Assembly (NCBI GenBank): GCA_013824085.1
Contig: PNNF01000008.1
Location: 1 to 64,000, forward strand
Length of the DNA: 64,000 nt
DNA from: Chlorobiaceae bacterium
Lineage (GTDB): Bacteria; Bacteroidota; Ignavibacteria; Ignavibacteriales; Ignavibacteriaceae
Reading direction: 5' to 3'
In this document: positions 41,377 through 63,927 of the stretch, in pieces
How positions within the stretch are numbered: the stretch's first letter is position 1
Layout of the letters: each line of letters opens with the position of its first letter
Program-made: the position numbers and the translations under genes
The notes under the pieces: model-generated
The model's input: only the letters and a program-made list of their open reading frames with translations
Told to the model about the DNA's origin: nothing
The model's database searches: none

Positions 41377-41789
41377 AACTGGTAAAGTTGCGCAATTGCT
41401 ATTTGGTGAATTCCAGATAGAGGAAAGTCCGAACTCCTTAGAGCGTGATGCCGGGTAACACCCGGGTGTTGTAGATGAAAATCTATAATAACTGAAAGTG
41501 CCACAGAAAATATACAACCTCGGATTTATTCGGGGAAATGGTGAAATGGCAGGGTAAGAGCCTACCGCATCGAGAGTAATCTCGGTGGTCTTTTAATAAG
41601 ATCCCTTTGGGACAAGGCAAACCACATCAGGAGCAAGGTTAAATAGGAAAATCTTCCGTAAAGGACGCAGTTGCTCGCTGCGATTGGTTTTCGGGTAAAC
41701 CGCTAAAGTTCAAAAGTAATTTTGAATTTAGAGAAATAATTGCACTCGTTTTTCGAGCAACAAAATTCGGCTTATAGACTTCACCAGTT
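41377..41789 (+). ncRNA. rnpB: RNase P RNA, bacterial type A
   Basis: About 413 nt. Conserved blocks are present in order: GAGGAAAGTCCGAACTCC, CTGAAAGTGCCACAGAAA, GTGAAATGGCAGGGTAAGAG with CCTACCGC, and the 3' segment ATTCGGCTTATAGACT. The 5' AACTGGT (41377-41383) pairs with ACCAGTT (41783-41789) to form P1, which fixes both ends. The RNA is the catalytic part of the tRNA 5'-processing enzyme. A U-rich run follows P1. The gene lies immediately upstream of recJ. Confidence 0.95.
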
Positions 41790-41810
41790 AATTTTCTTCT
41801 ACCAAATATT

Positions 41811-51197: not shown

Positions 51198-51250
51198 TAA
51201 CAACTCAAATAATATTCCACAGTATTTCCTCTTCATCTGATTACTGTTTA

Positions 51251-51294
51251 ATCTAAAAGGATTAGTTCCTTTTTCATCCCTTTGTCCGATTTAC
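51251..51294 (+). promoter_or_regulatory. Conserved upstream element, copy 1
   Basis: Repeat related to copies at 57256, 59523 and 63265. It reads TCTAAAAGGATTAGTTCC then a T-run, CATCCCTTTG and CGATTTAC. It ends 73 bp before the start of the DUF3494 lipoprotein gene. It is probably a promoter or operator. Two GGAT/ATCC half-sites flank the T-run. Confidence 0.65.
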
Positions 51295-51367
51295 ACTAAC
51301 ACAGTCGCTGTCTATCTTAATGCCAGATATTAATTAAAATCATGTTAACAAAAGGAGTTACTTTGTT

Positions 51368-54300
51368 ATGAACAAAATAAAAAACAAATATACAATCTGG
51401 TTTTTTCCATTGCTGCTATTTATGATAATGACAGGCTGCGATGATAGAATCGGGATCACCTCTCCACCTGCTATCACAATACCAACAGTGAGCAGCACGA
51501 ATCCAAGTAACGCAGCGATAGGTGTTCCTTTTAACCAGAGTGTTACAGCAACATTCAGCGAAGTAATGGATTCTGCAACCATTACAACCGCATCATTTAC
51601 TCTTATGCAAGGCTCATCATTTGTATCAGGTACAGTATCTTACATAGGTACAACTGCTATATTTGCACCGTCAAGTTTTCTCGCACCAAATACTCACTAT
51701 ACAGCAACGATAACCACTATGGCTCGGAGTTTTGCTGGTAGTGGATTGGCAAACAACTATGTCTGGAGCTTTACGACAGGTTTAGTAGCTGCTATAACGC
51801 CACCCACGATAACTTCAACGGATCCGGCTAATGCTGCTACAGGTGTTTCACTCAATCAAAAAATTGCAGCCTCCTTCAGTGTGCCAATGGATGCTACAAC
51901 GATTACAGCTTCGACATTTACTTTACTACAAGGTATAACGCCAATATCAGGCTTTGTTTCCTATTCAGGTACAACAGCAATTTTTGCACCGTCAAGTAAT
52001 CTTGCACCAAATACCGCATACACTGCCACGATTACAACCGGCGCTAAAAACTTGGCAGGCAATGCAATAGTGAGTAACTACAATTGGAGTTTTACAACAG
52101 GCGCAGCAGTAGTCATTACTCGGCCTTCTGTAACTTTCACAGACCCCGCTAATCTTGCAACAGGCGTGGCTTTGAATCAAAAAGTAGTAGCAACATTTAG
52201 TAAGACTATGGATGCCACAACAATTACAGCGGCAACATTTACCTTGAATCAAGGTACAACTCCTGTTGCAGGTTTTGTCTCCTATTCAGGTACAACAGCA
52301 ATTTTTTCACCCGCAAGCAACTTATTACCGAACACATTATACACAGCCACTATTACAACCGGGGCTAAGGATTTGACAGGCAATACTCTGGCAACTAATT
52401 ATGTTTGGAGCTTTACAACAGGCGCATTAATTGTCGTTACGCCACCAACAGTAAGTTCTACAGATCCTATTAATGCCGCAACAGGTGTGGTGTTGAATCA
52501 GAACGTTATCGCAACCTTTAGTAAAACAATGGATGCTTCAACTATTACGACAGCAACATTTACCCTTATGCAAGGAACTACATTTGTTTCTGGAACCGTA
52601 AGTTATTTAGGTACAACTGCAATTTATAATCCATCAACTAATCTTGCGCCAAATACCGTATATACAGCCACGATTACAACTGGGACTAAGGATTTGGCAG
52701 GCAACGCTCTGGTAAGTAACTATGTTTGGAATTTTACAACAGGTGCAGGAGTGATAGTCACTCCACCGATAGTAAGTTCTACAGATCCTGCTAATCTTGC
52801 GACAGGTGTTGCATTGAATCAGAGAGTAGCAGCAACCTTTAGTAAGACTATGGATGCTTCAACTATTACTTCAGCAACATTTACATTGAATCAAGGTGCA
52901 AATTCAATTTCTGGCTTTGTGTCATATACAGGTTTAACAGCTACTTTTGCACCGGCAAGCAACCTATTACCGAACACATTATATACAGCTACGATTACAA
53001 CCGGAGCTAGAGACTTGGCTGGCAATGCTCTGGTAAATAATTATGTCTGGACATTTACAACAGGAGCGGCAGTGGTTATCACTCCGCCAACAGTAATTTC
53101 AACAGACCCTGCTAATCTTGCAACAGGTGTTGCATTGAATCAGAGAGTAGCAGCAACCTTTAGTAAAACAATGGATGCTTCAACTATTACTACAGCAACA
53201 TTTACATTGAGACAAGGCACAACTTCAGTTTCAGGCTTCGTCTCTTATACAGGTTTAACTGCCACTTTTACACCAGCAAGCAACCTATTGCCAAGTACAT
53301 TATATACTGCCACGATTACAACCGGGGCTAGAGACTTAGCAGGCAATGCTCTGGTAAGTAACCATGTATGGACTTTTACAACAGGAGCGGCAGTGGTTAT
53401 CACTCCGCCAACAGTAATCTTAACAGACCCAGTTAATCTTGCAACAGGCGTGGCTTTGAACAAACAAATTACCGCAACCTTTAGCAAGACAATGGATGCT
53501 TCGACCATTACCACAGCAACATTTACATTAATGCAAGGTATCTCATTTGTGTCCGGCACTGTTAGCTATGTTGGTACGACAGCAACTTTTATACCGTCCA
53601 GTAATCTTGTGCCTAACACTTTATACACAGCCACGATTACAACCGGTGCTCGGGACTTAACAGGTACTGCAATGACAAGCAACTTTGTTTGGAGCTTCAC
53701 AACCGCTGTTCCAACTTTTACAGTGTCGCTCTCATCAAATCCGGCTGCAGGCGGAACTACAAGTGGAGCAGGTACATTTAATTCAGGCTCTTTAGTAACT
53801 GTAAACGCAACAGCAAATGCTGGATATTCATTTACTAACTGGACAGAAGGCGCGACTATCGTCTCTACAAATGCAAGTTATATCTTCACAATTAGTGAAA
53901 ACAGAACATTAGTAGCCAACTTTACAACACTTCCATCTGGTCCGGCTGGCGTAGATCTTGGGTCTGCAGGTAACTTTGCCATTCTGGCTGGTTCTGGAGT
54001 CTCCAATATCGGTCTTACTATAATTTATGGCGATGTCGGATCGTTTCCAACTTCCACTATTAATGGATTCCCTCCCGGAGTTGTGGTTGGAACGCTTTAT
54101 ATGACAGCTAATCCTATAGTAGGGCTAGCAAAAACCGATTTGACTACTGCTTTTAACGACGCCCAAAGTAGATCATTAAATGCTATCTCATTGCCAGGTC
54201 AATTAGGTGGTTTAACCCTCGCCCCTGGACTCTATGTTAACTCATCAACCAGTGGTATATCAGGAACTGGACCAAACGCAATTTTAACTCTTGATGCAGG

Positions 54301-54571
54301 AGGCAACCCAAATGCAGTATGGATATTTAAGATGGGATCCACGCTCGTAACTAGTTCCAACACTAGTATTGTTCTAGCCGGTGGTGCACAATGGCAAAAC
54401 ATCTATTGGTCGGTTGGTACTTCAGCAACACTTGGAACTAACTCCATCTTTTATGGAAATATTCTGGCTGATCAATCCATTACACTAACTACTGGTGCAA
54501 CATTGCGCGGTAGAGCATTGACACGGATTGCTGCAGTAACATTAGAAGCTAATATTGTAGATAAACGATAA
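51368..54571 (+). CDS. Surface lipoprotein: seven Ig-like repeats, InlB-type repeat, DUF3494 ice-binding-like domain
   Basis: This 1067-residue protein has lipobox IMTGC (Cys24), so it is a lipoprotein. Seven SbsA-type Ig-like (Big_5) repeats of 107 residues follow (about residues 41-789). Each carries the NxATGVxLNQ and SKTMDA segments and ends in VWSFTTG. Next is a divergent InlB B-repeat type domain (about 790-860, GTTSGAGTFNSGS, 'NAGYSFTNWTEG'). The C-terminal DUF3494 domain (about 865-1067) has LGSAGNFAILAGSGVSN, PNAVWIFKMGSTL and 'GGAQWQNIYWSVG'. DUF3494 is the fold of many bacterial ice-binding proteins, but members in non-polar bacteria may act as adhesins. It is predicted to be an exposed stalk with a DUF3494 tip. 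The start is preceded by AAAGGAG. Confidence 0.93.
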   Translation: MNKIKNKYTIWFFPLLLFMIMTGCDDRIGITSPPAITIPTVSSTNPSNAAIGVPFNQSVTATFSEVMDSATITTASFTLMQGSSFVSGTVSYIGTTAIFAPSSFLAPNTHYTATITTMARSFAGSGLANNYVWSFTTGLVAAITPPTITSTDPANAATGVSLNQKIAASFSVPMDATTITASTFTLLQGITPISGFVSYSGTTAIFAPSSNLAPNTAYTATITTGAKNLAGNAIVSNYNWSFTTGAAVVITRPSVTFTDPANLATGVALNQKVVATFSKTMDATTITAATFTLNQGTTPVAGFVSYSGTTAIFSPASNLLPNTLYTATITTGAKDLTGNTLATNYVWSFTTGALIVVTPPTVSSTDPINAATGVVLNQNVIATFSKTMDASTITTATFTLMQGTTFVSGTVSYLGTTAIYNPSTNLAPNTVYTATITTGTKDLAGNALVSNYVWNFTTGAGVIVTPPIVSSTDPANLATGVALNQRVAATFSKTMDASTITSATFTLNQGANSISGFVSYTGLTATFAPASNLLPNTLYTATITTGARDLAGNALVNNYVWTFTTGAAVVITPPTVISTDPANLATGVALNQRVAATFSKTMDASTITTATFTLRQGTTSVSGFVSYTGLTATFTPASNLLPSTLYTATITTGARDLAGNALVSNHVWTFTTGAAVVITPPTVILTDPVNLATGVALNKQITATFSKTMDASTITTATFTLMQGISFVSGTVSYVGTTATFIPSSNLVPNTLYTATITTGARDLTGTAMTSNFVWSFTTAVPTFTVSLSSNPAAGGTTSGAGTFNSGSLVTVNATANAGYSFTNWTEGATIVSTNASYIFTISENRTLVANFTTLPSGPAGVDLGSAGNFAILAGSGVSNIGLTIIYGDVGSFPTSTINGFPPGVVVGTLYMTANPIVGLAKTDLTTAFNDAQSRSLNAISLPGQLGGLTLAPGLYVNSSTSGISGTGPNAILTLDAGGNPNAVWIFKMGSTLVTSSNTSIVLAGGAQWQNIYWSVGTSATLGTNSIFYGNILADQSITLTTGATLRGRALTRIAAVTLEANIVDKR
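51488..53734 (+). repeat. Seven tandem in-frame repeats of exactly 321 bp
   Basis: Repeat units start at 51488, 51809, 52130, 52451, 52772, 53093 and 53414. Every spacing is exactly 321 bp (107 codons) with no indels. Units 5 and 6 are the most alike at nucleotide level, suggesting recent duplication, while unit 1 is the most diverged. Each encodes one Ig-like domain of the lipoprotein. Confidence 0.95.
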
Positions 54572-54588
54572 AATAAATTAGAAAAAAA

Positions 54589-54616
54589 TAGTGAGGAGGA
54601 TTTTAACTCCTCACTA
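54589..54616 (+). terminator. Terminator after the Ig/DUF3494 gene
   Basis: A 10-bp stem TAGTGAGGAG (54589-54598) with CTCCTCACTA (54607-54616) followed by CATTTTT. It lies 17 bp after the stop codon. Confidence 0.85.
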
Positions 54617-54699
54617 CATTTTTCACGATGAATGAACAAAGAACAGAACTGAAATAAATAAAGTTAAATAGGAATTCAAAAAAAAATAGGAAACATGAA

Positions 54700-55809
54700 A
54701 TGAAAAAATTTTTAATAACGCTTGCATTGATGTTGTTTGTTAACATTGGTGTTTCTCAAGCACAAGCAGTAACAGATAGCTGGACGTTTGGATTCGGTGC
54801 AAGTTACCCCAGATTTTACTCAGCAAATATAACCTCGTTAAATTCTAATTACGGCGCATATCTTTCAGTCCAACGCAATTTTTCAGAGCATGTTGGATTA
54901 AGACTTAGAGGAGGCTATGCACACCTTGAAGGAGAATGGACAGATGCAGCTTTTACCCTAATTACAACAGAGACAAACTTTTTTACAGCAGATCTTGATT
55001 TAGTTTATTATCCCGTTCCCTGCGCACCGGTTTCGCCCTATCTTTTTGCAGGAATTGGCGGACATTACAAATCTCTAACTAATAAACAAACTCCATTTTC
55101 TGATGATAGCAAATTCGGATCTCAATTAAACCTTGGTATTGGTGCCGATTTCAAAATTAGTTCGCGTTGGAGTTTCATCACAGAGTTCGGTTATCATCAA
55201 ACCAACAACTCAGAGCTTGATGGCGCTATTATCACTGATGTTACGAAAGAAGTGAACGGACGCGATTCTTATATAGTGCTTAGTCTTGGTTTCAATTATT
55301 TCTTCCACAAAGGTGAGACCTCAGAAATTTGTGAGCCTTGCCCTGGATTGCGAGTGGATATGAAAGATATGACAGACTATAACAAAATCGAGGAGATGAT
55401 TAAGAAGCACATTCCTAAAGAAGTAATCAAAGAAGTTGTTGTCGATAAATATATTTTAGCTATCTCGGAAGATAGATTGGTTCTGGTTGGTGTTAATTTT
55501 GCATTCGATAAATCAGACCTTTTACCTGAATCATACTATGTACTTGATAAAAGCGTAACTTTGCTGAATGATAATCCTGGTATTAATGTTGAGATTGAAG
55601 GATATACTGATGGTATCGGCACTCCTGAATACAACTACCAACTTTCATTGGAAAGAGCTAATACAGTTAAAAATTATCTTGTGTCAAAAGGAATTGCGGA
55701 AAACAGACTTTCAACTATCGGTTTCGGTGAAGGGAATCCGGCTGCAACCAACGAGACAGAAGAAGGCAGAGCAATGAATAGAAGAATTGTGTTTAGAATT
55801 ATTAAATAA
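54700..55809 (+). CDS. OmpA-family outer-membrane protein
   Basis: This 369-residue protein has a signal peptide (about 1-23). An N-terminal eight-strand-like beta-barrel (about 25-205) starts WTFGFGASYPRFY and ends IVLSLGFNYFF. A linker with two cysteines (SEICEPCPGL) leads to a C-terminal OmpA peptidoglycan-binding domain (about 250-369). Its motifs are VNFAFDKSDLLPESYYV and EIEGYTDGIGTPEYNYQLSL, followed by the RANTVKNYLVSKGI helix. It ties the outer membrane to peptidoglycan. It is flanked by hairpins on both sides, so it is its own unit. Confidence 0.94.
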   Translation: MKKFLITLALMLFVNIGVSQAQAVTDSWTFGFGASYPRFYSANITSLNSNYGAYLSVQRNFSEHVGLRLRGGYAHLEGEWTDAAFTLITTETNFFTADLDLVYYPVPCAPVSPYLFAGIGGHYKSLTNKQTPFSDDSKFGSQLNLGIGADFKISSRWSFITEFGYHQTNNSELDGAIITDVTKEVNGRDSYIVLSLGFNYFFHKGETSEICEPCPGLRVDMKDMTDYNKIEEMIKKHIPKEVIKEVVVDKYILAISEDRLVLVGVNFAFDKSDLLPESYYVLDKSVTLLNDNPGINVEIEGYTDGIGTPEYNYQLSLERANTVKNYLVSKGIAENRLSTIGFGEGNPAATNETEEGRAMNRRIVFRIIK

Positions 55810-55829
55810 AAAAACTTAGAAGTACGAAT

Positions 55830-55856
55830 GTCCCTGTATCTTAAAGCTACAGGGAC
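55830..55856 (+). terminator. Hairpin after the OmpA gene
   Basis: A 9-bp stem GTCCCTGTA (55830-55838) with TACAGGGAC (55848-55856), 20 bp past the stop. The tail TTCAATAAG is a poor U-tract, so termination may be partial. Confidence 0.65.
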
Positions 55857-55895
55857 TTCAATAAGCTAAAACGATATATCTAAAAGGAATTACAA

Positions 55896-56081
55896 ATGAA
55901 CAAGTTAAATATAAAAGGAAACTGGAACGAACTTGCAGGCAAGCTTAAACAAAAATTTGCCAACCTGACAGACGATGACTTGCTCTTCAAAGAGGGCAAA
56001 GAGGAAGAACTGTGGGGAAGACTTCAGCAGAAGCTTGGGAAAACCAAAGAACAAATACGCAAGCTAATTGCGAAATTATAA
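55896..56081 (+). CDS. CsbD-family stress protein
   Basis: This 61-residue protein matches the CsbD family: [17 protein letters not shown], then [18 protein letters not shown] and '[14 protein letters not shown]'. CsbD is a general-stress (sigma-B-controlled) protein in Bacillus subtilis, and it is widespread and small, with unknown biochemistry. AAAAGGAATT precedes the ATG. Two decayed copies of the same gene lie at 56937-57120 and 62942-63119. It precedes the DUF4382-like gene by 49 bp and may be co-transcribed. Confidence 0.92.
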
Positions 56082-56130
56082 CAAAATGTAGTTAATACTA
56101 CAATCATTTTACAAAGAAAGTTGTTAAATA

Positions 56131-56808
56131 ATGAAATTATCCATTTATCTTCTTCTTTTATTTATTTCTGTAAACTTGCTCACCGGATGTTCGGATAGCA
56201 CGAATAATCCCCAGGCTGGAGAAAACATCTCCGTAGCATTGGCTTTTGACAAGGGACTAAATAAAACTGGAAGTGACCCAATAGTTTTGGATTCCGTAAA
56301 AATATTACTCAAAGATATTAAATTCAGGCAAGCCGTCGGCGATTCATCAAATGTAAAAGTCGGACCAATGGTTGTGCACTTGAATTTGAATGGCGTTCCA
56401 ACAGAATTTGCAGCTGGTTTGGTTATTGCTGGCAATTATTCCAAGATTAAATTTCGCTTGCATAAACCTGAAGAGAGCGATGTAATTCTTGATCCGGAAT
56501 TTATCGCGGGCTCCAGTGGAGATCTAAGATACTCCGTAATAGTTAAAGGAAGATTCAACGGTGTTCCGTTTATTTACAAGTCAACTAAGACGGCAACTCA
56601 AGAAGTGAATTTTAAAAATTCAATAAACATAACTGAAGATGTTAAAACTTTTGTCACCCTTTCGGTTGATGTTAATTCTTGGTTTTATAAGGATACTTTA
56701 GTCCTTGATCCCAATAATATCAGTAACAAAAACGATATTGACAATAACATAAAAGACTCTTTCAAAAAGGCTTTCCGCGACAATAATAAAGACGGTATTG
56801 CTGATTAA
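56131..56808 (+). CDS. DUF4382-like lipoprotein
   Basis: This 225-residue lipoprotein has lipobox NLLTGC (Cys20). The mature part has the beta-sandwich-like layout of DUF4382 proteins: VALAFDKGLNKTGSDPIV, 'SVKILLKDIKFRQAVG' and AAGLVIAGNYSKIKFRL. The C-terminus ends FRDNNKDGIAD, a calcium-loop-like acidic motif. Family assignment is by resemblance only. It is followed after 5 bp by a strong terminator. Confidence 0.65.
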   Translation: MKLSIYLLLLFISVNLLTGCSDSTNNPQAGENISVALAFDKGLNKTGSDPIVLDSVKILLKDIKFRQAVGDSSNVKVGPMVVHLNLNGVPTEFAAGLVIAGNYSKIKFRLHKPEESDVILDPEFIAGSSGDLRYSVIVKGRFNGVPFIYKSTKTATQEVNFKNSINITEDVKTFVTLSVDVNSWFYKDTLVLDPNNISNKNDIDNNIKDSFKKAFRDNNKDGIAD

Positions 56809-56813
56809 ATTTT

Positions 56814-56837
56814 AAGGCTTGACGAGAGTCAAGCCTT
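56814..56837 (+). terminator. Terminator after the DUF4382-like gene
   Basis: A 10-bp stem AAGGCTTGAC (56814-56823) with GTCAAGCCTT (56828-56837), loop GAGA, followed by TATTT. It ends the csbD unit. Confidence 0.9.
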
Positions 56838-56936
56838 TATTTCCATACTAACAAAGCTTCTGTTTCACTCTCGACAAGCAGTAAGAAACAATTTTGTTAA
56901 TATTAATCTTAATTGATTACCATAAAAGCAGTAGAA

Positions 56937-57120
56937 ATGGAAAAGAACAATCTCATAGAAAACTGGAACGACCTCTTCAACAAGCTTAAAAAAATATTTG
57001 CCGATTTACCAACCATAGCAGATTCTTCAACGATGTGGCTTGTGACGAATTGTGGGAAAATTCTCAGCCCAACCTTGAGAAAATAAAAAATAAAATCAGA
57101 TTCCTATCGAGCAATTTTAT
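56937..57120 (+). pseudogene. Decayed CsbD copy 1
   Basis: From the ATG at 56937, the first frame reads 'IENWNDLFNKLKKIFADL', matching the start of the CsbD gene at 55896. The reading frame then shifts: another frame gives DELWENSQPNLEKIKNKIRF, matching the CsbD C-terminal half. It therefore carries a frameshift and a lost middle. The sequence after it also matches the region following the copy at 62942, and it leads to the conserved element at 57256. It is not expected to make a working protein. Confidence 0.8.
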
Positions 57121-57255
57121 CAGCCTCATCTCTCTATGGTTAATGTTTTCGATATGACGAATCTATTAGTCTTGTTCTGATTAGTAAAAAAAAATATTGA
57201 GACACAAAGCAAAAAAATCTCTCTTGGAATAGATTTTTAGCAGATAAAAATTGCT

Positions 57256-57306
57256 CTCATCCTAAAGGATTAGTTCTTTTTTCATCCTATTAGGCGATTG
57301 ATTTAC
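57256..57306 (+). promoter_or_regulatory. Conserved upstream element, copy 2
   Basis: Contains ATCCTAAAGGATTAG, a T-run, CATCCTATTAGG and GATTGATTTAC. It ends 60 bp before the ATG at 57367 of the T9SS DUF3494 gene. Nearly identical to copy 3 at 63265. Confidence 0.75.
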
Positions 57307-57366
57307 ACCACACCTTCCCCTAAATTCCTTTCAGTTTTAAGAAACAAATATCTAAAGGAGATTATT

Positions 57367-58686
57367 ATGAATATTCAAACAATTAATTCAACAAGTGTAA
57401 TGAGCAAATGTATGCGATTTATCGGCGCGATGCTGATTGTAGCATTGATGATGCCTGCCATTGCTTTTTCACAACCATTTGCCAACCCGGAACCAGTACC
57501 ACTTTTAACTGCCGGAACTTATGGGGCTTTAGCTTACTCGGGGATAACCGGTAATGCAACTGTTCATGGAGATGTTGGAACATCAACTGCATCGATAGAC
57601 GTAAGCATAACAGTCACTGGAGGAATTAACAGGGGTGTGGGCACCGCTCATGTTATACAAGCCCAAACTGACTTGGGTGCCGCGTTGACCAATGCCAACG
57701 GTCGAGTAAATAATCAAACTATCAGCGGGAATGCGCTCGGTGGACTTACTTTAGGACGTGGTGTCTATGAAGGCGGTGCTCTTGATCTTGCATCGGGAAC
57801 GACTTTAACACTCAATGGAAGTGCAACCGATGTCTTCATCATAAGAGCTGCGTCTTCACTTAATATCAATACTAATAGCAACGTGACCTTAACCGGCGGC
57901 GCTGTGTGGTCAAACGTCTTTTGGTATGTCGGCAGTTCAGCGACTATTTTTAGTGGTGTAACTTTCAATGGAATCATACTCGCTGTTACATCAATCACGC
58001 TGAATGCCGACGCAACTCAGGTAACAGCAAAATTTTTGGCTAATGGTGGTGCGGTTACAATAAACTCCTCTGTATTACCGGTGGAATTAACATCTTTTAC
58101 AGCATCATTAAATAACAGTGCAGTAGTATTAAATTGGAGCACAGCTACAGAAGTAGATAACTTCGGATTTGATGTTGAAAGTAGATTTGTTAAGGAAGAT
58201 GAGAATGGAAGAAATGGCGAAAGAGGGCGTTTGAGTGAATGGAATAAGATCGGCTTTGTACACGGACATGGGAATAGTAATTCACCAAAAGAATATGCAT
58301 TTAAAGATAAAAATCCAGAAGTCGGAATATTACAATACAGATTAAAGCAGATTGATACTGACGGCGCTTTCGAATACTCGAAAACAGTAGAAGTTAATTT
58401 TAATGTACCATTATTTTTTGTTCTGTACCAAAACTATCCGAACCCTTTTAATCCCTCTACAAATATTCAATACACAATTGGGAATGCCGGTTTGGTAACA
58501 CTTAAAGTGTATAATCTTATTGGAAATGAAGTTGCTACTCTCGTAAACGCCCGGCAGGCAGCTGGAAGTTACTCAGTTCAGTTTTACGCGAGTGAAGAAA
58601 ATCTGAATTTTTCAAGTGGTGTCTATCTCTATCGTTTAGAATCAGGTTCTTTCGTCTCGACGAAGAAGTTTATCTTGATTAAGTAA
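57367..58686 (+). CDS. T9SS-secreted DUF3494 ice-binding-like protein
   Basis: Secreted surface protein of about 439 residues. I take the ATG at 57367 (MNIQTIN), which follows CTAAAGGAG. An upstream ATG at 57298 lies inside the conserved element and is unlikely. After a signal peptide (ending IAFSQP), a DUF3494 domain (about 38-235) shows GNATVHGDVGTSTAS, 'GGLTLGRGVYEGG' and GGAVWSNVFWYVGSSATI. A linker domain (VELTSFTASLNNSAVVLNWS) is typical of T9SS cargo. The C-terminal type A sorting domain carries QNYPNPFNPSTNIQY and ends GVYLYRL then KKFILIK. It is therefore exported by T9SS and attached or released at the cell surface. Confidence 0.93.
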   Translation: MNIQTINSTSVMSKCMRFIGAMLIVALMMPAIAFSQPFANPEPVPLLTAGTYGALAYSGITGNATVHGDVGTSTASIDVSITVTGGINRGVGTAHVIQAQTDLGAALTNANGRVNNQTISGNALGGLTLGRGVYEGGALDLASGTTLTLNGSATDVFIIRAASSLNINTNSNVTLTGGAVWSNVFWYVGSSATIFSGVTFNGIILAVTSITLNADATQVTAKFLANGGAVTINSSVLPVELTSFTASLNNSAVVLNWSTATEVDNFGFDVESRFVKEDENGRNGERGRLSEWNKIGFVHGHGNSNSPKEYAFKDKNPEVGILQYRLKQIDTDGAFEYSKTVEVNFNVPLFFVLYQNYPNPFNPSTNIQYTIGNAGLVTLKVYNLIGNEVATLVNARQAAGSYSVQFYASEENLNFSSGVYLYRLESGSFVSTKKFILIK

Positions 58687-58698
58687 ATAAGTAAATGC

Positions 58699-58736
58699 TA
58701 ACCTCAATCTCTTGGAAGACTGGGAGATTGAGGTTA
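58699..58736 (+). terminator. Long hairpin after the T9SS DUF3494 gene
   Basis: A 13-bp perfect stem TAACCTCAATCTC (58699-58711) with GAGATTGAGGTTA (58724-58736), 13 bp past the stop. It lacks a U-tract after it, so it may act as a transcript-end stabiliser as well as a weak terminator. Confidence 0.65.
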
Positions 58737-58876
58737 TGAAAAGGAAAAAATATTTTTTTGGTTGTTTGTTCTCATTCAATCAAAGAAATTATTGACTTCC
58801 CTTTCCACAAAAATTCTAGAAAAAATAGAATTGTTTTTATTTCAGTAGTCAATTAATAATTAAAAAAGGAGAGCAT

Positions 58877-59203
58877 ATGAAAAAAATATTTGTCGGTATT
58901 CTGACTTTAGTATTATTTGTTTTCATCTATGGTTGTGCCCGTAATACAGATCCTCAATTCAGTATCCGGAACGAACAGGCGAATAAAGTAGATGTAAAAA
59001 TACAAACCTCATTAGGGAATAAAATCACCATTAACGATGTCGAACCCGGACAAACTACGGCGTATCAAACTGCAACGGAAGGAAATATTACAGCGACAGA
59101 TGTTATTCGGAACGAGTCGGTATCATTCCTTGCTGAAAAAAATACTCGCTACACAATTGTCATTAGTGGAGACAAACCACCATCAGTGGCTGTTGATCAA
59201 TAA
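58877..59203 (+). CDS. Small lipoprotein, paralogue A
   Basis: This 108-residue lipoprotein has lipobox FIYGC (Cys20). The mature part is a beta-rich domain: DPQFSIRNEQANKVDVKIQ, 'NDVEPGQTTAYQTATEGNIT' and NESVSFLAEKNTRYTIVI. It is clearly paralogous to the protein at 61862-62200 (112 residues), sharing NDVxPGQxTA, EGNITAT and NESVS. Both have Cys20. No known domain; DUF4397-type sandwich proteins are similar in spirit. Strong ribosome-binding site AAAAAGGAGAG before the ATG. Confidence 0.82.
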   Translation: MKKIFVGILTLVLFVFIYGCARNTDPQFSIRNEQANKVDVKIQTSLGNKITINDVEPGQTTAYQTATEGNITATDVIRNESVSFLAEKNTRYTIVISGDKPPSVAVDQ

Positions 59204-59654
59204 CTGTGATGATGCAATAATGATAAGCCGACGCTTTATGCTGCGGTAAACAGCAATGAAAGATGTGAGATGGAAAATGGAGAAACCTAGTTCCAAATAT
59301 TTTTACTTACACAGCGCCAATGGTAACCCTGTAGCAGGTTGTTAAATCTGCAAGAGGCAGGCGAAAAAACAAAAAGCTACTTAACATTACAGTAGCGTTT
59401 GCCGAAGCCAATTTTTCTTTCACTTTAGTAATTCTAAAAAAGACTGTAAAGGTATTCACAATGATTAAGATACATTTAATTTCTCACTGTATCCTCGATT
59501 TCATCAGAGGGCTTTATCAACCAAAAGATGTAGTTCCCTTTTCAATCCTTTGCCCTATTTATCTTTCTTTTAATATTTTCTATATTTTGTTTGCAAATAA
59601 TAGACCATTGAAGCGTTTTCACATTTATCAAAACAAATTAAAAAGGCTGCACTA
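59204..59654. other. Non-coding stretch with a weak copy of the conserved element
   Basis: No convincing gene. An open stretch (59461-59655) has no family similarity and overlaps the regulatory repeat, so I reject it as a gene. A stem GCTACT (59376-59381) with AGTAGC (59391-59396) lies midway. The conserved element copy 4 is at 59523-59562. Confidence 0.5.
59523..59562 (+). promoter_or_regulatory. Conserved upstream element, copy 4 (diverged)
   Basis: Reads CAAAAGATGTAGTTCCC, then TTTTC, AATCCTTTG and CCCTATTTAT. It aligns best with copy 1, sharing TAGTTCC and CCTTTG with a pyrimidine-CC following. It ends 92 bp before the gene at 59655. This copy is the weakest of the four. Confidence 0.5.
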
Positions 59655-60446
59655 ATGAAACATATAAATCATACAATTACAGAGAGTATCGCAAAACTGA
59701 TTATCCGGTGGTTTCAATTTTCAGTTGTAATTATTGCGCTCACAATATCGATGAGCACACAATCGGTAGCGCAAATAAATTTTAAACTTGGCGGCGGTTT
59801 CGGAGTAATGAGTCCGGCTTCAGACTTAAGCGGCTCAACCATTGAATATTATAACGGCTCCAACTATGGACTCAGCAGTGGTCTTAACATTCATTTGAAA
59901 GGAAAGGTTGGGTTATTAGGCTTAAACCTCACTGGAGAAATTGATTACTCGTCGTTAAGTAACAGTGGAAATTCTGAAATAGGTGAAGGGAAAATTGATA
60001 TTTCGCAAAAAATTCTGTCGCTAAAATTGGGACCTGAATTTCGCCTAAGTTTACCTTTGTTGCCGATCGTTCCTTACATCGGCGCAAACCTCGCATTGAA
60101 TTCATTCACTGGTGAGACGACATTTCAAGGTGTTCCAAGAGTTCCGAGTGCAACATACAGCGTGAATGCTGCGACACGTATTGGTGTCGGATTCACAGCG
60201 GGAGCAGAAGTGAGCATAGGACCGTTACTAACGCTTGACTTTAATCTCTCGTATAACTTAATGAATGTTTCCGGTGCTGAATGGACAGATGTAAATCCGG
60301 AGATAAATCGCCGAGTTGATTCCTATCTTTCTTTGAATGACTTGCAAGACCCCCTTTATTCTGCTGGTGACGATAGTCATTTCGTTTCAAAGGCACGGAA
60401 TATTCACTCGGTACTGTTCAAGGTAAGTCTTTTGTTCGGTTTGTAG
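59655..60446 (+). CDS. Outer-membrane beta-barrel protein
   Basis: This 263-residue protein has an unusually long N-terminus before the signal-peptide core (about 25-40, ending SVAQINF), so translation might begin later. The mature part has alternating hydrophobic strands and a C-terminal aromatic SLLFGL. Examples are FKLGGGFGVMSPASDL, LKLGPEFRLSLPLLPIVPY and 'RIGVGFTAGAEVSIGPLL'. It lies downstream of conserved element copy 4. Probably a small barrel or porin; function unknown. Confidence 0.8.
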   Translation: MKHINHTITESIAKLIIRWFQFSVVIIALTISMSTQSVAQINFKLGGGFGVMSPASDLSGSTIEYYNGSNYGLSSGLNIHLKGKVGLLGLNLTGEIDYSSLSNSGNSEIGEGKIDISQKILSLKLGPEFRLSLPLLPIVPYIGANLALNSFTGETTFQGVPRVPSATYSVNAATRIGVGFTAGAEVSIGPLLTLDFNLSYNLMNVSGAEWTDVNPEINRRVDSYLSLNDLQDPLYSAGDDSHFVSKARNIHSVLFKVSLLFGL

Positions 60447-60531
60447 TATTTGAGATGTTATAATGAAACTCGCTCTGCTCGCTTGAAGGTTATGTAGAGG
60501 AGTAAAACACTAATTTAAGAAAGGTAATTTT

Positions 60532-61080
60532 ATGTTTAAGAATTTGATGATAATAATAGGAATAATTTTAATGATGCTTACCCAAGTGAATGCACAAAGC
60601 ATAAATCTAGGACCACAGATCGGTTATCAAAAAGCCAGGGATGCAGATGAAGGGAAATTTTTTGGTGGTGCAGCAATGCGGTTGAAGTTGACTCCGAATC
60701 TTGGCGTTGAAGCTTCCATTAATTATCGTGCGGAAGAATATTACGATGGCGCCTTGACAGTTAAGAGCTGGCCTGTAATGATAACTGGTTTATATTATCC
60801 AATCCCAATAGTTTATGGGGCAATTGGCGCAGGATGGTACAACACAACTTTCGATTTTGATCAGAGTAAGTTTCCGTTTCAGCTTGTTGCTGATGAAACC
60901 CAACAAAAATTTGGCTGGCATTTTGGCGGCGGTGTGGAGTTACCGATAGGTTCAAATTCAAAATTCACAGCAGATCTCCGATATGTTTTTATAGATTACG
61001 ACTTTAGCAGCATACCGGGTATTGGTGAAAAGAATAGCGATTTTTATCTCTTCTCCGTCGGTTTTCTTTTTGGTCTATAA
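60532..61080 (+). CDS. Small outer-membrane beta-barrel protein
   Basis: This 182-residue protein has a signal peptide (1-21, ending VNAQS) and an OmpW/OmpX-like barrel with strands such as INLGPQIGYQKARDADEGKF and FGWHFGGGVELPIG. It ends FYLFSVGFLFGL, the aromatic C-terminus recognised by BAM. AGAAAGGTAAT precedes the start. It is 27 bp upstream of the response regulator gene and may be co-transcribed with it. Confidence 0.85.
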   Translation: MFKNLMIIIGIILMMLTQVNAQSINLGPQIGYQKARDADEGKFFGGAAMRLKLTPNLGVEASINYRAEEYYDGALTVKSWPVMITGLYYPIPIVYGAIGAGWYNTTFDFDQSKFPFQLVADETQQKFGWHFGGGVELPIGSNSKFTADLRYVFIDYDFSSIPGIGEKNSDFYLFSVGFLFGL

Positions 61081-61107
61081 TTAATTTTAACGAGTATTAA
61101 AGTATTT

Positions 61108-61782
61108 ATGAAAAAAATCAGTTTGCTAATCATTGAGGACAATCGTCTTCTTAGGGATGGAATGCTTGCTATTCTCAAACCTCAAAAGGATATTGTTATT
61201 ATTGGGGCATCAGCAGACGCTAAGAGCACTCTTGCAAAAATTCAAGAGTTAAAACCTAATGTGGTTCTATTAGATTTGGGATTGCGAAGTCAGAACAGTT
61301 TGCACGTAGTGGAATTAGTGAAGAAAGAATTTCCAAAAGCAAAAATTATAATTATGGGGTTTGCCTCCGTTCAAGCCGATATCCTACAGTATGTGAAAGC
61401 AGGCGCAAATGGTTTTATCCTAAAAGATGCATCACTTAATGATTTATTAGTCACAATTCGAACTGTTGCCGATGGGTCAACTGTTCTTCCGCCTCCCTTG
61501 ATTGATTCCCTCTTTTCCAAAATTGTAGAACACGCAGTGAGAGAGGGTAAACCAAAACTGAAAGAGGCAGTCCGAATGACAAAGCGGGAACAAGAAGTTA
61601 TCGAGTTACTTGGTGAAGGAATGAGTAACAGAGAGATTGCTCAAAAAACTCTCATCTCCATCTATACGGTTAAAAGTCATATTCATAATATAATGGAGAA
61701 ACTTGCACTACACACGCGGTTGGAAATTGCAAAATATTCTTACGCTGATCAATCTCATAAAACAATTTCAAAGAGTATTTAG
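61108..61782 (+). CDS. LuxR/NarL-family response regulator (orphan)
   Basis: Transcription factor of 224 residues. The receiver (1-120) has acidic residues Glu10 and Asp11, phospho-acceptor Asp56 in VLLDLGLR, and Lys106 in FILKDAS. The usual Thr/Ser switch residue is replaced by Gly84 in IIIMGFAS. The LuxR HTH (about 160-220) reads TKREQEVIELLGEGMSNREI and 'SIYTVKSHIHNIMEKL'. No kinase gene is adjacent, so it is an orphan. It is located in the middle of the surface-protein island and is the best candidate to bind the repeated element. Confidence 0.93.
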   Translation: MKKISLLIIEDNRLLRDGMLAILKPQKDIVIIGASADAKSTLAKIQELKPNVVLLDLGLRSQNSLHVVELVKKEFPKAKIIIMGFASVQADILQYVKAGANGFILKDASLNDLLVTIRTVADGSTVLPPPLIDSLFSKIVEHAVREGKPKLKEAVRMTKREQEVIELLGEGMSNREIAQKTLISIYTVKSHIHNIMEKLALHTRLEIAKYSYADQSHKTISKSI

Positions 61783-61861
61783 ATGATCAATAATTAATTA
61801 ATCAATTACCGTTTCATTAAAAATAATTGAATGAAACAAAATAATCACTTAAGGAGAAAAG

Positions 61862-62200
61862 ATGAGAAATATAATTATCGGCATTCTTAGCTTGGTATTT
61901 ATGATTGCCATCACTGGTTGCACCGACAAAACAAACCCTAAATTCCGTGTCCTCAATGAACGATCAACTAAAGCTAATGTTCAGATTCAGACAACTGGTG
62001 GAAATACGATTAATCTTAACGACGTTCAACCCGGACAAGCAACGGCATTTCATTCTGCTGCAGAAGGAAATATTACCGCAACTGCTGTTATTCAAAATGA
62101 GTCTGTATCACCTACAATTACTTTCTTTGCGATATATGATGAGGAATATACAATCGTTATTCAAATGACCACTCCTCCGTCTCTTCGCGTAGATAGATAA
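61862..62200 (+). CDS. Small lipoprotein, paralogue B
   Basis: This 112-residue lipoprotein has lipobox AITGC (Cys20). The mature domain matches paralogue A (58877-59203): FRVLNERSTKANVQIQTTGG, NDVQPGQATAF, EGNITATAVIQNESVS. It lies 79 bp after the response regulator. A perfect 8-bp inverted repeat (GTTTCATT 61811-61818, AATGAAAC 61830-61837) stands upstream and could be an operator or the end of the regulator transcript. The function of the pair is unknown. Confidence 0.82.
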   Translation: MRNIIIGILSLVFMIAITGCTDKTNPKFRVLNERSTKANVQIQTTGGNTINLNDVQPGQATAFHSAAEGNITATAVIQNESVSPTITFFAIYDEEYTIVIQMTTPPSLRVDR

Positions 62201-62231
62201 CAAATATTTTGACAGGAGTAGGTGTGAAAAA

Positions 62232-62276
62232 TTAGCTTCGGAAGATTGAAAGTCTTACGAAGCTAATCAATTTTTT
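62232..62276 (+). terminator. Terminator after lipoprotein paralogue B
   Basis: A 9-bp perfect stem TTAGCTTCG (62232-62240) with CGAAGCTAA (62258-62266), then TCAATTTTTT. It is 32 bp after the stop. Confidence 0.85.
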
Positions 62277-62343
62277 AGATAATTGCTGTTCGTTCTTCTT
62301 TAAGTTGAATGTAACAGCAGATAATTAAATTAAGGAAAAAATT

Positions 62344-62868
62344 ATGCGTTACTTTATTGTTTTAGTCGCAGCTTTGTTACTCTTGAGCACATCAATTGCT
62401 CAAGTGCAAGTTAATGTTAACTTCAACTTGGACAGGCAACCAGTTTGGGGACCCACCGGTTATGATTATGTAGAATATTATTACTTGCCCGATATCGATG
62501 TTTACTACAATGTCCCGCTACAACGTTATTACTTTTATGACCAAGGAAGATGGATTTACAGGTCATCTCTGCCTTCACGTTTTGGTAACTTTAACTTCTT
62601 TAAAACTTATAAAGTAGTCGTGAATGAGCGCGAGCCCTGGCGCAATCATAAATCATACAAGAAAAAATATTACGCATACAAAGATCGTCACGACCAAAAA
62701 TCAATTCGAGATAGTCGGGATTCAAAATACTTTGTGAATAAAAATCATCCTGAACACAGTAGATGGATAAAGGAACAAAAGAATGATAAAGAAAATGCCA
62801 AAGGACAGAATCGTGATAAAAAAAATGACAACAAGAAAAAAGGCGGACAAGGTAATCAGAAAAAATAG
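62344..62868 (+). CDS. Secreted Tyr-rich protein with basic tail
   Basis: This 174-residue protein has a signal peptide (about 1-19, ending SIAQVQ). The mature N-terminal half is rich in Tyr and Phe: GYDYVEYYYLPDIDVYYN, 'QRYYFYDQGRWIYRSSLPS'. The last 60 residues are very basic and low in complexity, with many Lys, Asn, Asp and Gln. Similar short secreted proteins are common in Bacteroidota and Ignavibacteria but have no assigned function. The basic tail could bind nucleic acid or an acidic surface polymer; this is inference. Preceded by AAGGAAAAA. Confidence 0.8.
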   Translation: MRYFIVLVAALLLLSTSIAQVQVNVNFNLDRQPVWGPTGYDYVEYYYLPDIDVYYNVPLQRYYFYDQGRWIYRSSLPSRFGNFNFFKTYKVVVNEREPWRNHKSYKKKYYAYKDRHDQKSIRDSRDSKYFVNKNHPEHSRWIKEQKNDKENAKGQNRDKKNDNKKKGGQGNQKK

Positions 62869-62941
62869 TTTTGATTTAGATATTTTTATATCCCGATTAA
62901 AATCTTAATAGATAAACTTTCAAACTATAGCCGGTAAATTT

Positions 62942-63119
62942 GGACAGCACAATGTTAGTGAAAACTAGAACGAACTCTTGTGCCAGATTAAAAGAAATAT
63001 TTACCGGTTCACCAATCAATAAAATACTCTTCAAAGATTAAGTTAAGCCGAACTGTTGGGAAGTTCAAAACTGAAACTTGAGGAGAAAAAAAATCAGATT
63101 CATTTCGAGCAGTATTAAC
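62942..63119 (+). pseudogene. Decayed CsbD copy 2
   Basis: The nucleotide sequence aligns with the CsbD remnant at 56937. GTGAAAACTAGAACGAACTC corresponds to the 'ENWNEL' region, with the Trp codon changed to a TAG stop. Later in-frame stops occur, and the end (AAAAAATCAGATTCATTTCG) matches the shared 3' part. It has no open reading frame. It is followed by the spacer and the conserved element at 63265. Confidence 0.75.
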
Positions 63120-63264
63120 AGCCTCATCTGGTTCATGCTAATGTTTTTTACATGACACTTTGCATTAACTTCTTCTGATTTTAAATAACACAAAAAAGTA
63201 TGGGGAGACAATTCAAAAAAAAAGAATTCCTCTTGGCAATTATTTTTCGCAAAAACAAATTGTT

Positions 63265-63315
63265 CTAATCCTAAAGGATTAGTTCCTTTTTCATCCTATT
63301 AGGTGATTGATTTAC
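63265..63315 (+). promoter_or_regulatory. Conserved upstream element, copy 3
   Basis: Contains AATCCTAAAGGATTAG, CCTTTTTC, ATCCTATTAGG and GATTGATTTAC. It ends 72 bp before the ATG at 63388. AATCC-TAAA-GGATT is a short inverted repeat. This copy is nearly identical to copy 2. Confidence 0.75.
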
Positions 63316-63387
63316 CCCTCTCCTTTTTCATAGTTTAGGTTGTGTTCAAAAAAAGTTTACGAACTAATTAGTTAAGGAGGATCAGAA

Positions 63388-63927
63388 ATGGTTAGGATAA
63401 TTACCACACATAAAGTAGGGAGTTTCACAGTGGGAAGATCTGTTTTATTCGGTTTGGTTTTAGTGATGTTGATGATACTTACAAAACCACTTGGCGCACA
63501 GGACCGCGGATTTGGACTTGGATTTATTTTGGGAGAGCCAACGGGATTGAGTGCTAAACTCTGGACTTCACGAGTTAATGCTTTTGATTTCGGTCTTGGC
63601 TTGTCAGTTGGTGGCGACCGCATCTCAAACGGGCACCACTACGATGGTGACGGCCGCGTCCGTTTTCATATGGATTATCTATGGCACTCATTCAATGCAA
63701 TAAGTTCAACCGAAAGATTTCCAGTCTATTATGGAGTCGGTGGCAGGTTTAACAGTGGTGGGGGTTACGAGGCTTCACTTGGAGTAAGAGGCGTGATTGG
63801 TATAGTTTGGCTTCCACGAGATACCCCTATTGATATTTTTGTTGAGTTAGTGCCCGTGCTTCAACTTACGCCGGGGACTGGGTTTGGAATTGATGCAGGG
63901 CTGGGAATACGATATTTCTTCCAATAA
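63388..63927 (+). CDS. Outer-membrane protein
   Basis: This 179-residue protein begins after AAGGAGGATC. A signal-peptide core (about 18-38, ending KPLGAQD) is preceded by a longer basic N-terminus. The mature barrel starts GFGLGFILGEPTGLSAKLW and has YYGVGGRFNSGGGYEASLG, and the C-terminus is aromatic (GIRYFFQ). It resembles short outer-membrane proteins common in Bacteroidota and Spirochaetes-type sets; no substrate is known. It is controlled, by inference, through conserved element copy 3. Confidence 0.82.
   Translation: MVRIITTHKVGSFTVGRSVLFGLVLVMLMILTKPLGAQDRGFGLGFILGEPTGLSAKLWTSRVNAFDFGLGLSVGGDRISNGHHYDGDGRVRFHMDYLWHSFNAISSTERFPVYYGVGGRFNSGGGYEASLGVRGVIGIVWLPRDTPIDIFVELVPVLQLTPGTGFGIDAGLGIRYFFQ

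What the first reader, a model, noticed from the sequence alone, without database searches (positions are those of the whole stretch)
51251..63315. A conserved element of about 50 bp upstream of four surface-protein genes: candidate regulon
Related sequences lie at 51251-51294, 57256-57306, 59523-59562 and 63265-63315. They sit 73, 60, 92 and 72 bp upstream of genes for a DUF3494 lipoprotein, a DUF3494 T9SS cargo and two outer-membrane barrel proteins. The core is AATCCTAAAGGATTAG, then a T-run, then CATCC. Copies 2 and 3 are nearly identical; copies 1 and 4 share a variant 3' half with CCTTTG. All are on the plus strand. Constant spacing, unrelated downstream coding sequence and location between genes argue for a promoter or operator. 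The orphan LuxR-type regulator at 61108, in the same island, is the natural candidate to bind it.
Basis: partly seen in the sequence, partly recalled or inferred. Interest (0 to 1): 0.75.

Follow-up and report, generated by a model that had tools for sequence, protein, structure and literature searches.

The report
Shared promoter switch of Ignavibacteria island
A conserved stretch of about 45 bases sits directly on the promoters of many surface and stress-type genes in Ignavibacteria and their relatives, and it turns up almost only in genomes that also carry one kind of regulator protein, which points to an undescribed gene-control network that can be tested.

Summary
The element is real. A matrix trained without this genome finds exactly the four copies in the window (52.7-60.1 bits; next best -7.8; maximum of 4 Mb random sequence -4.7), and a whole-genome search adds two just beyond its end. 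About 300 copies were found in fetched loci, nearly all from relatives. They align without gaps: a box of about 45 bp (TCAcCCAAAAGATGTAGTTCCTTTTTCATCCCTTTGnnCGATTGA) fused to a sigma-70-like promoter (-35 TTGA, 17 bp, -10 TAnnnT). Only 1 of 279 sites lies inside a long ORF; 173 of 177 neighbouring sites share a strand. Downstream genes suggest an envelope/general-stress regulon and include the LuxR-type response regulator itself. In the family sample all 28 genomes with this regulator have the box and 48 of 52 without it lack it. Corrections: copies 2 and 4 (not 2 and 3) are near-identical, by an old duplication; the genome has six sites and two such regulators; the distance to the -10 is fixed, that to the start codon is not.

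The parts
51248..51293 (+). activator box, copy 1
   Evidence: PWM 60.1 bits; model R1 E 1.3e-12
51290..51318 (+). promoter of copy 1: -35 TTTACA (51290-51295), 17 bp, -10 TATCTT (51313-51318); predicted start about 51325
   Evidence: positions fixed by the alignment of relatives; also listed by the sigma-70 scan
51368..54571 (+). target gene: lipoprotein-like protein with 7 Big_5 repeats and an Ice_binding (DUF3494) domain
   Evidence: Pfam
57256..57301 (+). activator box, copy 2
   Evidence: PWM 59.5 bits; R1 E 4.0e-12
57298..57326 (+). promoter of copy 2: -35 TTGATT (57298-57303), 17 bp, -10 TAAATT (57321-57326)
   Evidence: read from the sequence in the register of the relatives
57367..58686 (+). 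target gene: Ice_binding protein with T9SS sorting tail
   Evidence: Pfam/NCBIfam
59516..59561 (+). activator box, copy 3 (AAAGATGTAG form, the commonest among fetched sites)
   Evidence: PWM 59.1 bits; R1 E 1.8e-11
59558..59586 (+). promoter of copy 3: -35 TTTATC (59558-59563), 17 bp, -10 TATATT (59581-59586)
   Evidence: read from the sequence in the register of the relatives
59655..60446 (+). target gene: outer-membrane beta-barrel protein, first of a probable operon 59655-61782
   Evidence: PF13505; gaps of 85 and 27 bp to the next two genes; operon inferred
60532..61080 (+). outer-membrane beta-barrel protein, second gene of the probable operon
   Evidence: PF13505
61108..61782 (+). LuxR/NarL-type response regulator (group A), candidate activator; last gene of the probable operon behind box 3
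   Evidence: PF00072 + PF00196; co-occurrence with the box
63265..63310 (+). activator box, copy 4
   Evidence: PWM 52.7 bits; R1 E 9e-11
63307..63336 (+). promoter of copy 4: -35 TTGATT (63307-63312); -10 weak: ATAGTT at the standard place, or TAGTTT (63331-63336) with an 18-bp spacer
   Evidence: read from the sequence in the register of the relatives
63388..63927 (+). target gene: predicted outer-membrane protein; its cluster stands behind 10 boxes in 10 loci
   Evidence: cluster 5; no Pfam or NCBIfam hit
56944..57316 (+). duplicated block (decayed CsbD gene plus box 2), pair of 62946-63325
   Evidence: self-BLASTN, 73% over 388 columns
62946..63325 (+). duplicated block (decayed CsbD gene plus box 4), pair of 56944-57316
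   Evidence: self-BLASTN

Best explanation
The element is the binding site of a transcription activator, joined at a fixed distance to a sigma-70-type promoter. Its likely binder is the LuxR/NarL-type response regulator encoded in the same island (61108-61782, group A), alone or together with its paralogue at contig position 69475 (group B). When active, the regulator occupies the box of about 45 bp that runs from about -76 to the -35 hexamer, touches RNA polymerase there (class II activation), and switches on a set of outer-membrane, ice-binding-like, envelope and small stress-type genes, and often its own gene. Shown: element, promoter geometry, target set, phyletic and positional link with the regulator. 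Inferred: binding, activation rather than repression, the signal, and the physiological role as an envelope/general-stress response.
For: Element: 164 distinct sites in the window and in loci fetched from the genomes hit align without gaps; columns that were not used to find them are conserved too (CTTTG at 24-28, ATT at 33-35, T, A and T of the -10 at 57, 58 and 62). TAnnnT stands at offset 57 in 119 of 164 sites against 0-14 at the other offsets from 40 to 84 except offset 62 (31); TTGA/TTTA stands at offset 34 in 108. No RNA structure (0 pairs), and the box lies upstream of the -10. Placement: 1 of 279 sites lies in an ORF of 150 aa or more although 69% of that DNA does; 173 of 177 neighbours share a strand. 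Own genome: 6 sites, next hit E 0.02. Regulator: in the family sample the best homologue has E <= 1.2e-65 in 28 of 80 genomes and E >= 2.8e-39 (or no hit at 1e-30) in the rest; all 28 have the box at E < 1e-4; 4 more genomes have the box without the regulator (G016, G037, G045, G068: 630 contigs, or 68-84% complete); 48 have neither (Fisher). Phylum sample of 395: 22 with the box, 21 of them with an intact regulator and 1 with a fragment; 4 regulator-positive genomes without a hit have diverged boxes just after the regulator gene on its strand, one of them weak. Linkage control: the island's KaiC-like gene is found in 20 of the same 32 genomes, the PAS kinase in 8 and also in 4 box-less ones. 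Autoregulation: box 60-420 bp before the regulator in 22 of 37 group-A and 9 of 69 group-B genes. A Zixibacteriota contig with a regulator 56% identical carries a box beside it.
Against: No binding or expression data. The regulator lies in the same island, so part of the co-occurrence may be shared transfer; the KaiC-like gene also associates strongly (p 6e-11), only less completely. Four box-positive genomes show no regulator. The pattern used to collect sites came from the window, so conservation inside those 24 columns is partly selected, and a few of the 164 sites are probably chance (lowest score -18.7). Genomes of one family are not independent; no tree-based test was run. Most group-B genes (60 of 69) have no box before them, and the window's own regulator none directly before it. 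Four of 39 named contigs with regulators of 46% identity or more show no box: L230 and three Gemmatimonadetes (two of the latter genomes searched whole, none). The symmetry expected of a LuxR-type dimer site is weak: direct repeat 0.394 against a 95% null of 0.372, inverted 0.346 against 0.345; positions 6 and 9 covary as a dyad (p about 1e-16), but 4-11 do not and 5-10 go the other way. The switch residue of the receiver is unusual, so ordinary control by phosphorylation is doubtful.
Confidence: 0.8

Rival explanations
1. The box is bound by another regulator, linked or not, and the LuxR-type regulator is only one more target carried in the island.
For: The regulator is itself a frequent target (16 of 240 downstream proteins); symmetry typical of LuxR dimers is weak; 4 box-positive genomes lack it; the KaiC-like gene also tracks the box.
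Against: The two other island genes tested track the box less completely (KaiC-like 20 of 32, kinase 8 of 32, regulator 28 of 32). Other genes were not tested.
Confidence: 0.12
2. The whole conserved stretch is the promoter of an alternative (ECF-type) sigma factor, not an activator site.
For: Long, gap-free conservation up to the -10; the reverse strand holds GGAACT, which recalls ECF -35 elements (recalled); one downstream protein looks like a sigma factor by eye (not scanned).
Against: The downstream part already has -35 TTGA and -10 TAnnnT at 17 bp, and conservation reaches about 40 bp upstream of that -35, beyond the usual sigma contacts.
Confidence: 0.04
3. The copies are remnants of a repeat or mobile element.
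For: Copies 2 and 4 are in a duplication; islands are patchy among close relatives; one viral contig has an exact core.
Against: Conservation falls away outside the box and promoter, the place before genes and at the -10 is fixed, 1 of 279 in ORFs, and the box is conserved above the flanks in the duplicated pair.
Confidence: 0.02
4. The element is a transcribed leader (riboswitch, attenuator or small RNA).
For: Copy 4 contains a perfect hairpin-like palindrome CTAATCCTAAAGGATTAG.
Against: It lies upstream of the -35/-10; copies 1 and 3 do not keep the palindrome; 0 consensus pairs in 146 sequences; no Rfam match there at gathering thresholds.
Confidence: 0.02

Closest known systems
BldM and WhiI of Streptomyces (orphan, atypical LuxR-type response regulators that act as homo- or heterodimer; PMC4125116, passages read)
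   Same: Two LuxR-type response regulators; an asymmetric common form of the site beside a rarer palindromic form.
   Different: Different phylum and targets; the box is about 45 bp against 16 bp; no binding data here; here both genes sit in one island.
RcsB of E. coli (NarL-type response regulator, envelope stress; 14-nt RcsA/B consensus TAAGAATATTCCTA quoted in PMC12388358, passage read)
   Same: NarL-type regulator of envelope genes; a similar short AT-rich dyad in the palindromic variants here.
   Different: The window's regulator scores 47.6 bits against a cut-off of 235 for RcsB; longer, mostly asymmetric box; an Rcs phosphorelay was not looked for.
General stress regulon of sigma B in Bacillus subtilis (csbD, ytxH and dps are in a SigB core list of PMC7824861, passages read)
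   Same: Overlapping target kinds: CsbD, YtxH, ferritin-like.
   Different: No alternative sigma factor implied: the promoter is sigma-70-like and the control sits in an upstream box.
NarL/FixJ-family two-component activators in general
   Same: Receiver plus GerE helix-turn-helix; box next to -35, the class II position (recalled).
   Different: No cognate kinase found; the receiver's switch Thr/Ser position is Asp in 96 and Gly in 12 of 111 homologues.

Membership tests
Activator-controlled regulon (conserved operator plus promoter) | same site upstream of several transcription units, intergenic, in fixed register with the promoter | tested here: met
Activator-controlled regulon (conserved operator plus promoter) | a named protein binds the site and changes transcription | not testable with these tools
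   only co-occurrence and linkage
Sigma-70-type promoter | -35 TTGACA-like, about 17 bp, -10 TATAAT-like | tested here: met
   TTGA/TTTA at offset 34 in 108 of 164, TAnnnT at 57 in 119 of 164; copy 4 of the window has a weak -10; the plain sigma-70 scan shows no excess over shuffles in this region
NarL/FixJ (LuxR-type) response regulators | receiver domain plus GerE DNA-binding domain | tested here: met
   PF00072 and PF00196 above cut-off for 61108 and for 69475
NarL/FixJ (LuxR-type) response regulators | conserved phosphorylation residues: acidic pair, Asp, switch Thr/Ser, Lys (list recalled) | tested here: not met
   Asp56 in 106 of 111 and Lys106 in 111 of 111, but the switch position is Asp in 96 and Gly in 12 of 111: a variant receiver
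RcsB, NarL and other named NCBIfam response regulators | score above the curated cut-off | tested here: not met
   for 61108, best of 25 shown of 66: MctR 130.8 against 300, NarL 128.7 against 250, RcsB 47.6 against 235
BldM-WhiI type heterodimer | two regulators bind one asymmetric site as heterodimer | not testable with these tools
   two or more close homologues in 23 of 28 family genomes and a mostly asymmetric core; group A was not monophyletic in a quick tree
Rfam RNA elements | conserved RNA structure | tested here: not met

The most novel reading that the evidence does not exclude
The paralogous regulators, whose receivers carry Asp (or Gly) at the switch position, form a heterodimer that need not be switched by ordinary phosphorylation and that reads the asymmetric 45-bp box; together they are the master switch of a previously undescribed general/envelope stress response of Ignavibacteria, spread as a package of regulator pair plus box-bearing genes and even passed to another phylum (Zixibacteriota).
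Probability: 0.25. Interest if true: 0.78.

Novelty: new member of a known kind. Interest (0 to 1): 0.63.

Why it matters
Gene control in Ignavibacteria, a largely uncultured group, is little studied (my judgement; the listings showed no such work). This gives a precise operator, its promoter, a list of targets and a candidate regulator across dozens of genomes, and so makes a stress/surface regulon directly testable. It also suggests a stress or envelope context for proteins of unknown role (ice-binding-like DUF3494, the DUF4070 radical SAM protein, the KaiC-like ATPase, DUF4398, lmo0937 family), and it points to a response-regulator variant with an altered switch residue.

Tried and rejected
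RNA element: rejected. Mobile repeat: rejected, though copies 2 and 4 are duplicates. Sigma-70 scan of the region: no excess of promoters over shuffles (36 against 38.3), so promoter calls rest on the alignment of relatives, not on that scan. Cognate kinase: the PAS kinase cluster behind 7 boxes was tried as partner; it is found in 8 of 32 box-positive and 4 of 48 box-negative genomes, so it is not the general partner; no kinase was found. Dyad symmetry: mixed. Regulator tree: group A, defined by score, was not monophyletic (37 members in a clade of 55), so no claim of two clades is made. Gemmatimonadetes contigs: no box in three, nor in the two whole genomes searched. Viral contigs: one contig with an exact 22-bp core, not followed. 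Structure prediction was not used. Literature: seven searches bore on the box or regulon and two on comparisons. The sequence search found no paper; in the others I saw only the listed top papers (20, 3, 12, 4, 3 and 10 of 162, 3, 1243, 4, 3 and 2447), and none of these is about this box or regulon by title and abstract start. Apart from listings I saw passages of PMC7824861, PMC4125116 and PMC12388358; PMC9847131 was searched for four gene names without a hit.
Full report
What is there. The best gap-free description comes from relatives. A search for the 24-base core with up to 3 mismatches gave 3 hits in this genome, none outside the window, and hits in 27 of 80 genomes of the family (this one included), while the reversed pattern gave none in any of the 80. 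I fetched the surroundings and found 164 distinct sites, a few of them probably chance (lowest matrix score -18.7). They align without gaps over about 70 bases. With AAAG as position 0 the consensus runs TCAcCCA (-7 to -1), AAAGATGTAGTTCCTTTTTCATCC (0-23), CTTTG (24-28), nnCGATTGA (29-37), the -35 being 34-39, then 17 little-conserved bases, then TAnnnT (57-62). The columns outside 0-23 were not used to collect the sites, so their conservation is independent evidence.

Promoter. TTGA or TTTA stands at offset 34 in 108 of 164 sites and TAnnnT at offset 57 in 119 of 164; the other offsets from 40 to 84 have 0-14 TAnnnT, except offset 62 with 31. That is a sigma-70-like -35 and -10 with a 17-base spacer. 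The conserved box therefore covers about -76 to -35, the place of a class II activator site. The window's copies 1, 2 and 3 have the hexamers exactly in register (TTTACA/TATCTT, TTGATT/TAAATT, TTTATC/TATATT). Copy 4 has TTGATT and a weak -10 (ATAGTT in register, TAGTTT one base on). The distance from box to start codon is not fixed (median 145 bp); the distance to the -10 is.

More than chance. A weight matrix trained on 159 of the 164 sites, those of this genome left out, scores the four window copies 60.1, 59.5, 59.1 and 52.7 bits; the next best place in the window has -7.8 and the best of 4 Mb of Markov sequence -4.7. A sequence-only model (R1, built from 146 sites of other genomes) finds six sites at E below 1e-7 in the whole genome, all on this contig and strand: the four, plus 66605 and 70190 beyond the window; the seventh hit has E 0.02. 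Site 66605 precedes a 49-aa lmo0937-family protein and an AI-2E-type transporter; site 70190 precedes a KaiC-like ATPase.

Duplication. Copies 2 and 4 lie in a block of 388 columns with 73% identity that begins in decayed CsbD genes. Within it the box is 41/44 identical, the rest 233/342 (p = 3e-4). So copying explains that pair but not its conservation, and not copies 1 and 3.

Distribution. In the family, 42 of 80 genomes have a hit at E <= 0.01, of which ten are single weak hits at 2.6e-4 to 0.008 that I dropped as noise; 32 remain at E < 1e-4, with up to 34 sites each. Among 395 genomes of the phylum 22 have a hit at E <= 1e-3: this one, thirteen others of the same order, seven of the same class, one further out (that run scored at most 12 candidates per genome, so counts there are lower bounds). 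Later fetches raised the collection to 305 distinct sites above 20 bits. Of the 279 above 35 bits, 1 lies in an ORF of 150 aa or more, against 69% of the DNA, and 173 of 177 neighbouring pairs are on the same strand, median gap 2.2 kb. Sites thus form co-oriented islands, with some sites far away or on other contigs (for example G456 and G041).

Targets. 240 downstream proteins (sites above 35 bits with an ORF of 50 aa or more within 450 bp) fall into 80 clusters. Counted by sites, the largest are the LuxR-type regulator (16), Ice_binding/DUF3494 proteins (16, with that of box 2; the representative has a T9SS tail), a B12-binding radical SAM protein with DUF4070 (16), KaiC-like ATPase (13), CsbD (12), the outer-membrane protein family of 63388 (10), the type of 51368 (9), YtxH (9), a hybrid PAS kinase (7), DUF4398 (7), MlaE permease (6), AI-2E transporter (5), ferritin-like (4); names from Pfam on single representatives. 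Fifty clusters are single proteins or unnamed small ones among them, and some called ORFs may not be genes. CsbD, YtxH and Dps are in the sigma-B general-stress list of Bacillus (PMC7824861, passages read). Stress or envelope response is therefore an inference from the target list.

Regulator. The window's regulator 61108-61782 is the last gene of a probable operon behind box 3. In the family the best homologue of a genome has E <= 1.2e-65 in 28 of 80 genomes and E >= 2.8e-39, or none at 1e-30, in the other 52. All 28 have the box; of the 52, 48 lack it and 4 have it (G016, G037, G045, G068), each with 1-4 sites and in a fragmented or incomplete assembly (Fisher p about 1e-17). The pattern holds inside mixed genera (for example G027 against G028-G031, G060 against G059, G075 against G073, G074 and G076). 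In the phylum sample all 22 box-positive genomes have it, one as a fragment with stop codons; four regulator-positive genomes without a hit (G093, G172, G366, G428) show diverged boxes just after the regulator gene, three clearly and one weakly against 20 mononucleotide shuffles each. As a linkage control the island's KaiC-like gene is present in 20 of the 32 box-positive genomes and in none of the 48 others (two hits of 37-38% identity left out; Fisher 6e-11), so linkage alone also gives a strong association, but a less complete one. The box stands 60-420 bp before 22 of 37 group-A and 9 of 69 group-B regulator genes that have enough sequence upstream. Among the 39 named loci with a regulator of 46% identity or more, 35 contain a box above 5 bits, including a Zixibacteriota contig; L230 and three Gemmatimonadetes contigs do not. 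In the Zixibacteriota genome the model finds one site (E 6.8e-5). Of seven loci with only weak or short regulator matches, one has a box, beside a 39-residue regulator fragment at a contig end.

A variant receiver. In 111 close homologues from the fetched loci the phosphorylated Asp is kept in 106 and the Lys in 111, but the switch position (Thr/Ser in ordinary receivers, 22 residues before the Lys; recalled from CheY) is Asp in 96 and Gly in 12; the window's copy has Gly. Nine more distant sequences in the same alignment are mixed there (3 Gly, 2 Asp, 2 Ser among the commonest). The cut-offs of the named NCBIfam regulators listed are not reached. Whether phosphorylation matters is open.

Site architecture. 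The commonest core, GATGTAGTTC, is asymmetric (102 of 279), while 9 of 279 are perfect 10-bp palindromes, 8 of them GGATTAATCC; T at 6 and A at 9 go together (p about 1e-16, not corrected for relatedness), but the pairs 4-11 and 5-10 do not support a dyad, and repeat scores barely pass the null. BldM-WhiI of Streptomyces is a precedent for an asymmetric site read by two LuxR-type orphans (PMC4125116, passages read). With two or more close homologues in 23 of the 28 genomes a heterodimer is possible, but it is unproven.

Verdict. Observation real with wrong details; interpretation supported and widened. It is a new regulon of a known kind: an activator box on sigma-70-type promoters, most likely read by an orphan, variant LuxR-type response regulator that often also controls itself. 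None of the papers listed in seven searches of the held library describes it by title and abstract start.

Noticed in passing
window 51481-53706: Seven tandem 321-bp repeats (Big_5 domains; 61-79% identity to the reference copies) in the lipoprotein-like gene 51368-54571.
   Followed up: no
window 55896-56081, 56932-57086, about 62946-63060: One intact CsbD gene and two decayed copies; the intact one has no box before it although CsbD genes stand behind 12 boxes in fetched loci.
   Followed up: partly
window 58877-59203 and 61862-62200: Paralogous small lipoprotein-like genes (69% over 271 bp); a similar protein cluster stands behind 5 boxes in relatives (likeness by eye).
   Followed up: no
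window 41380-41790: RNase P RNA, class A.
   Followed up: no
L267 8562-8583 (-): One viral contig (IMGVR_UViG_3300011725_000002) holds an exact 22-base core of the box.
   Followed up: no
L265 (G141:C132): A regulator fragment with stop codons beside two strong boxes (55.6 and 55.4 bits): a genome that may be losing the system.
   Followed up: no
L053 9475-10167 (contig position 69475): Second LuxR-type regulator, 53% identical to 61108, directly before the KaiC-like gene with its own box.
   Followed up: partly
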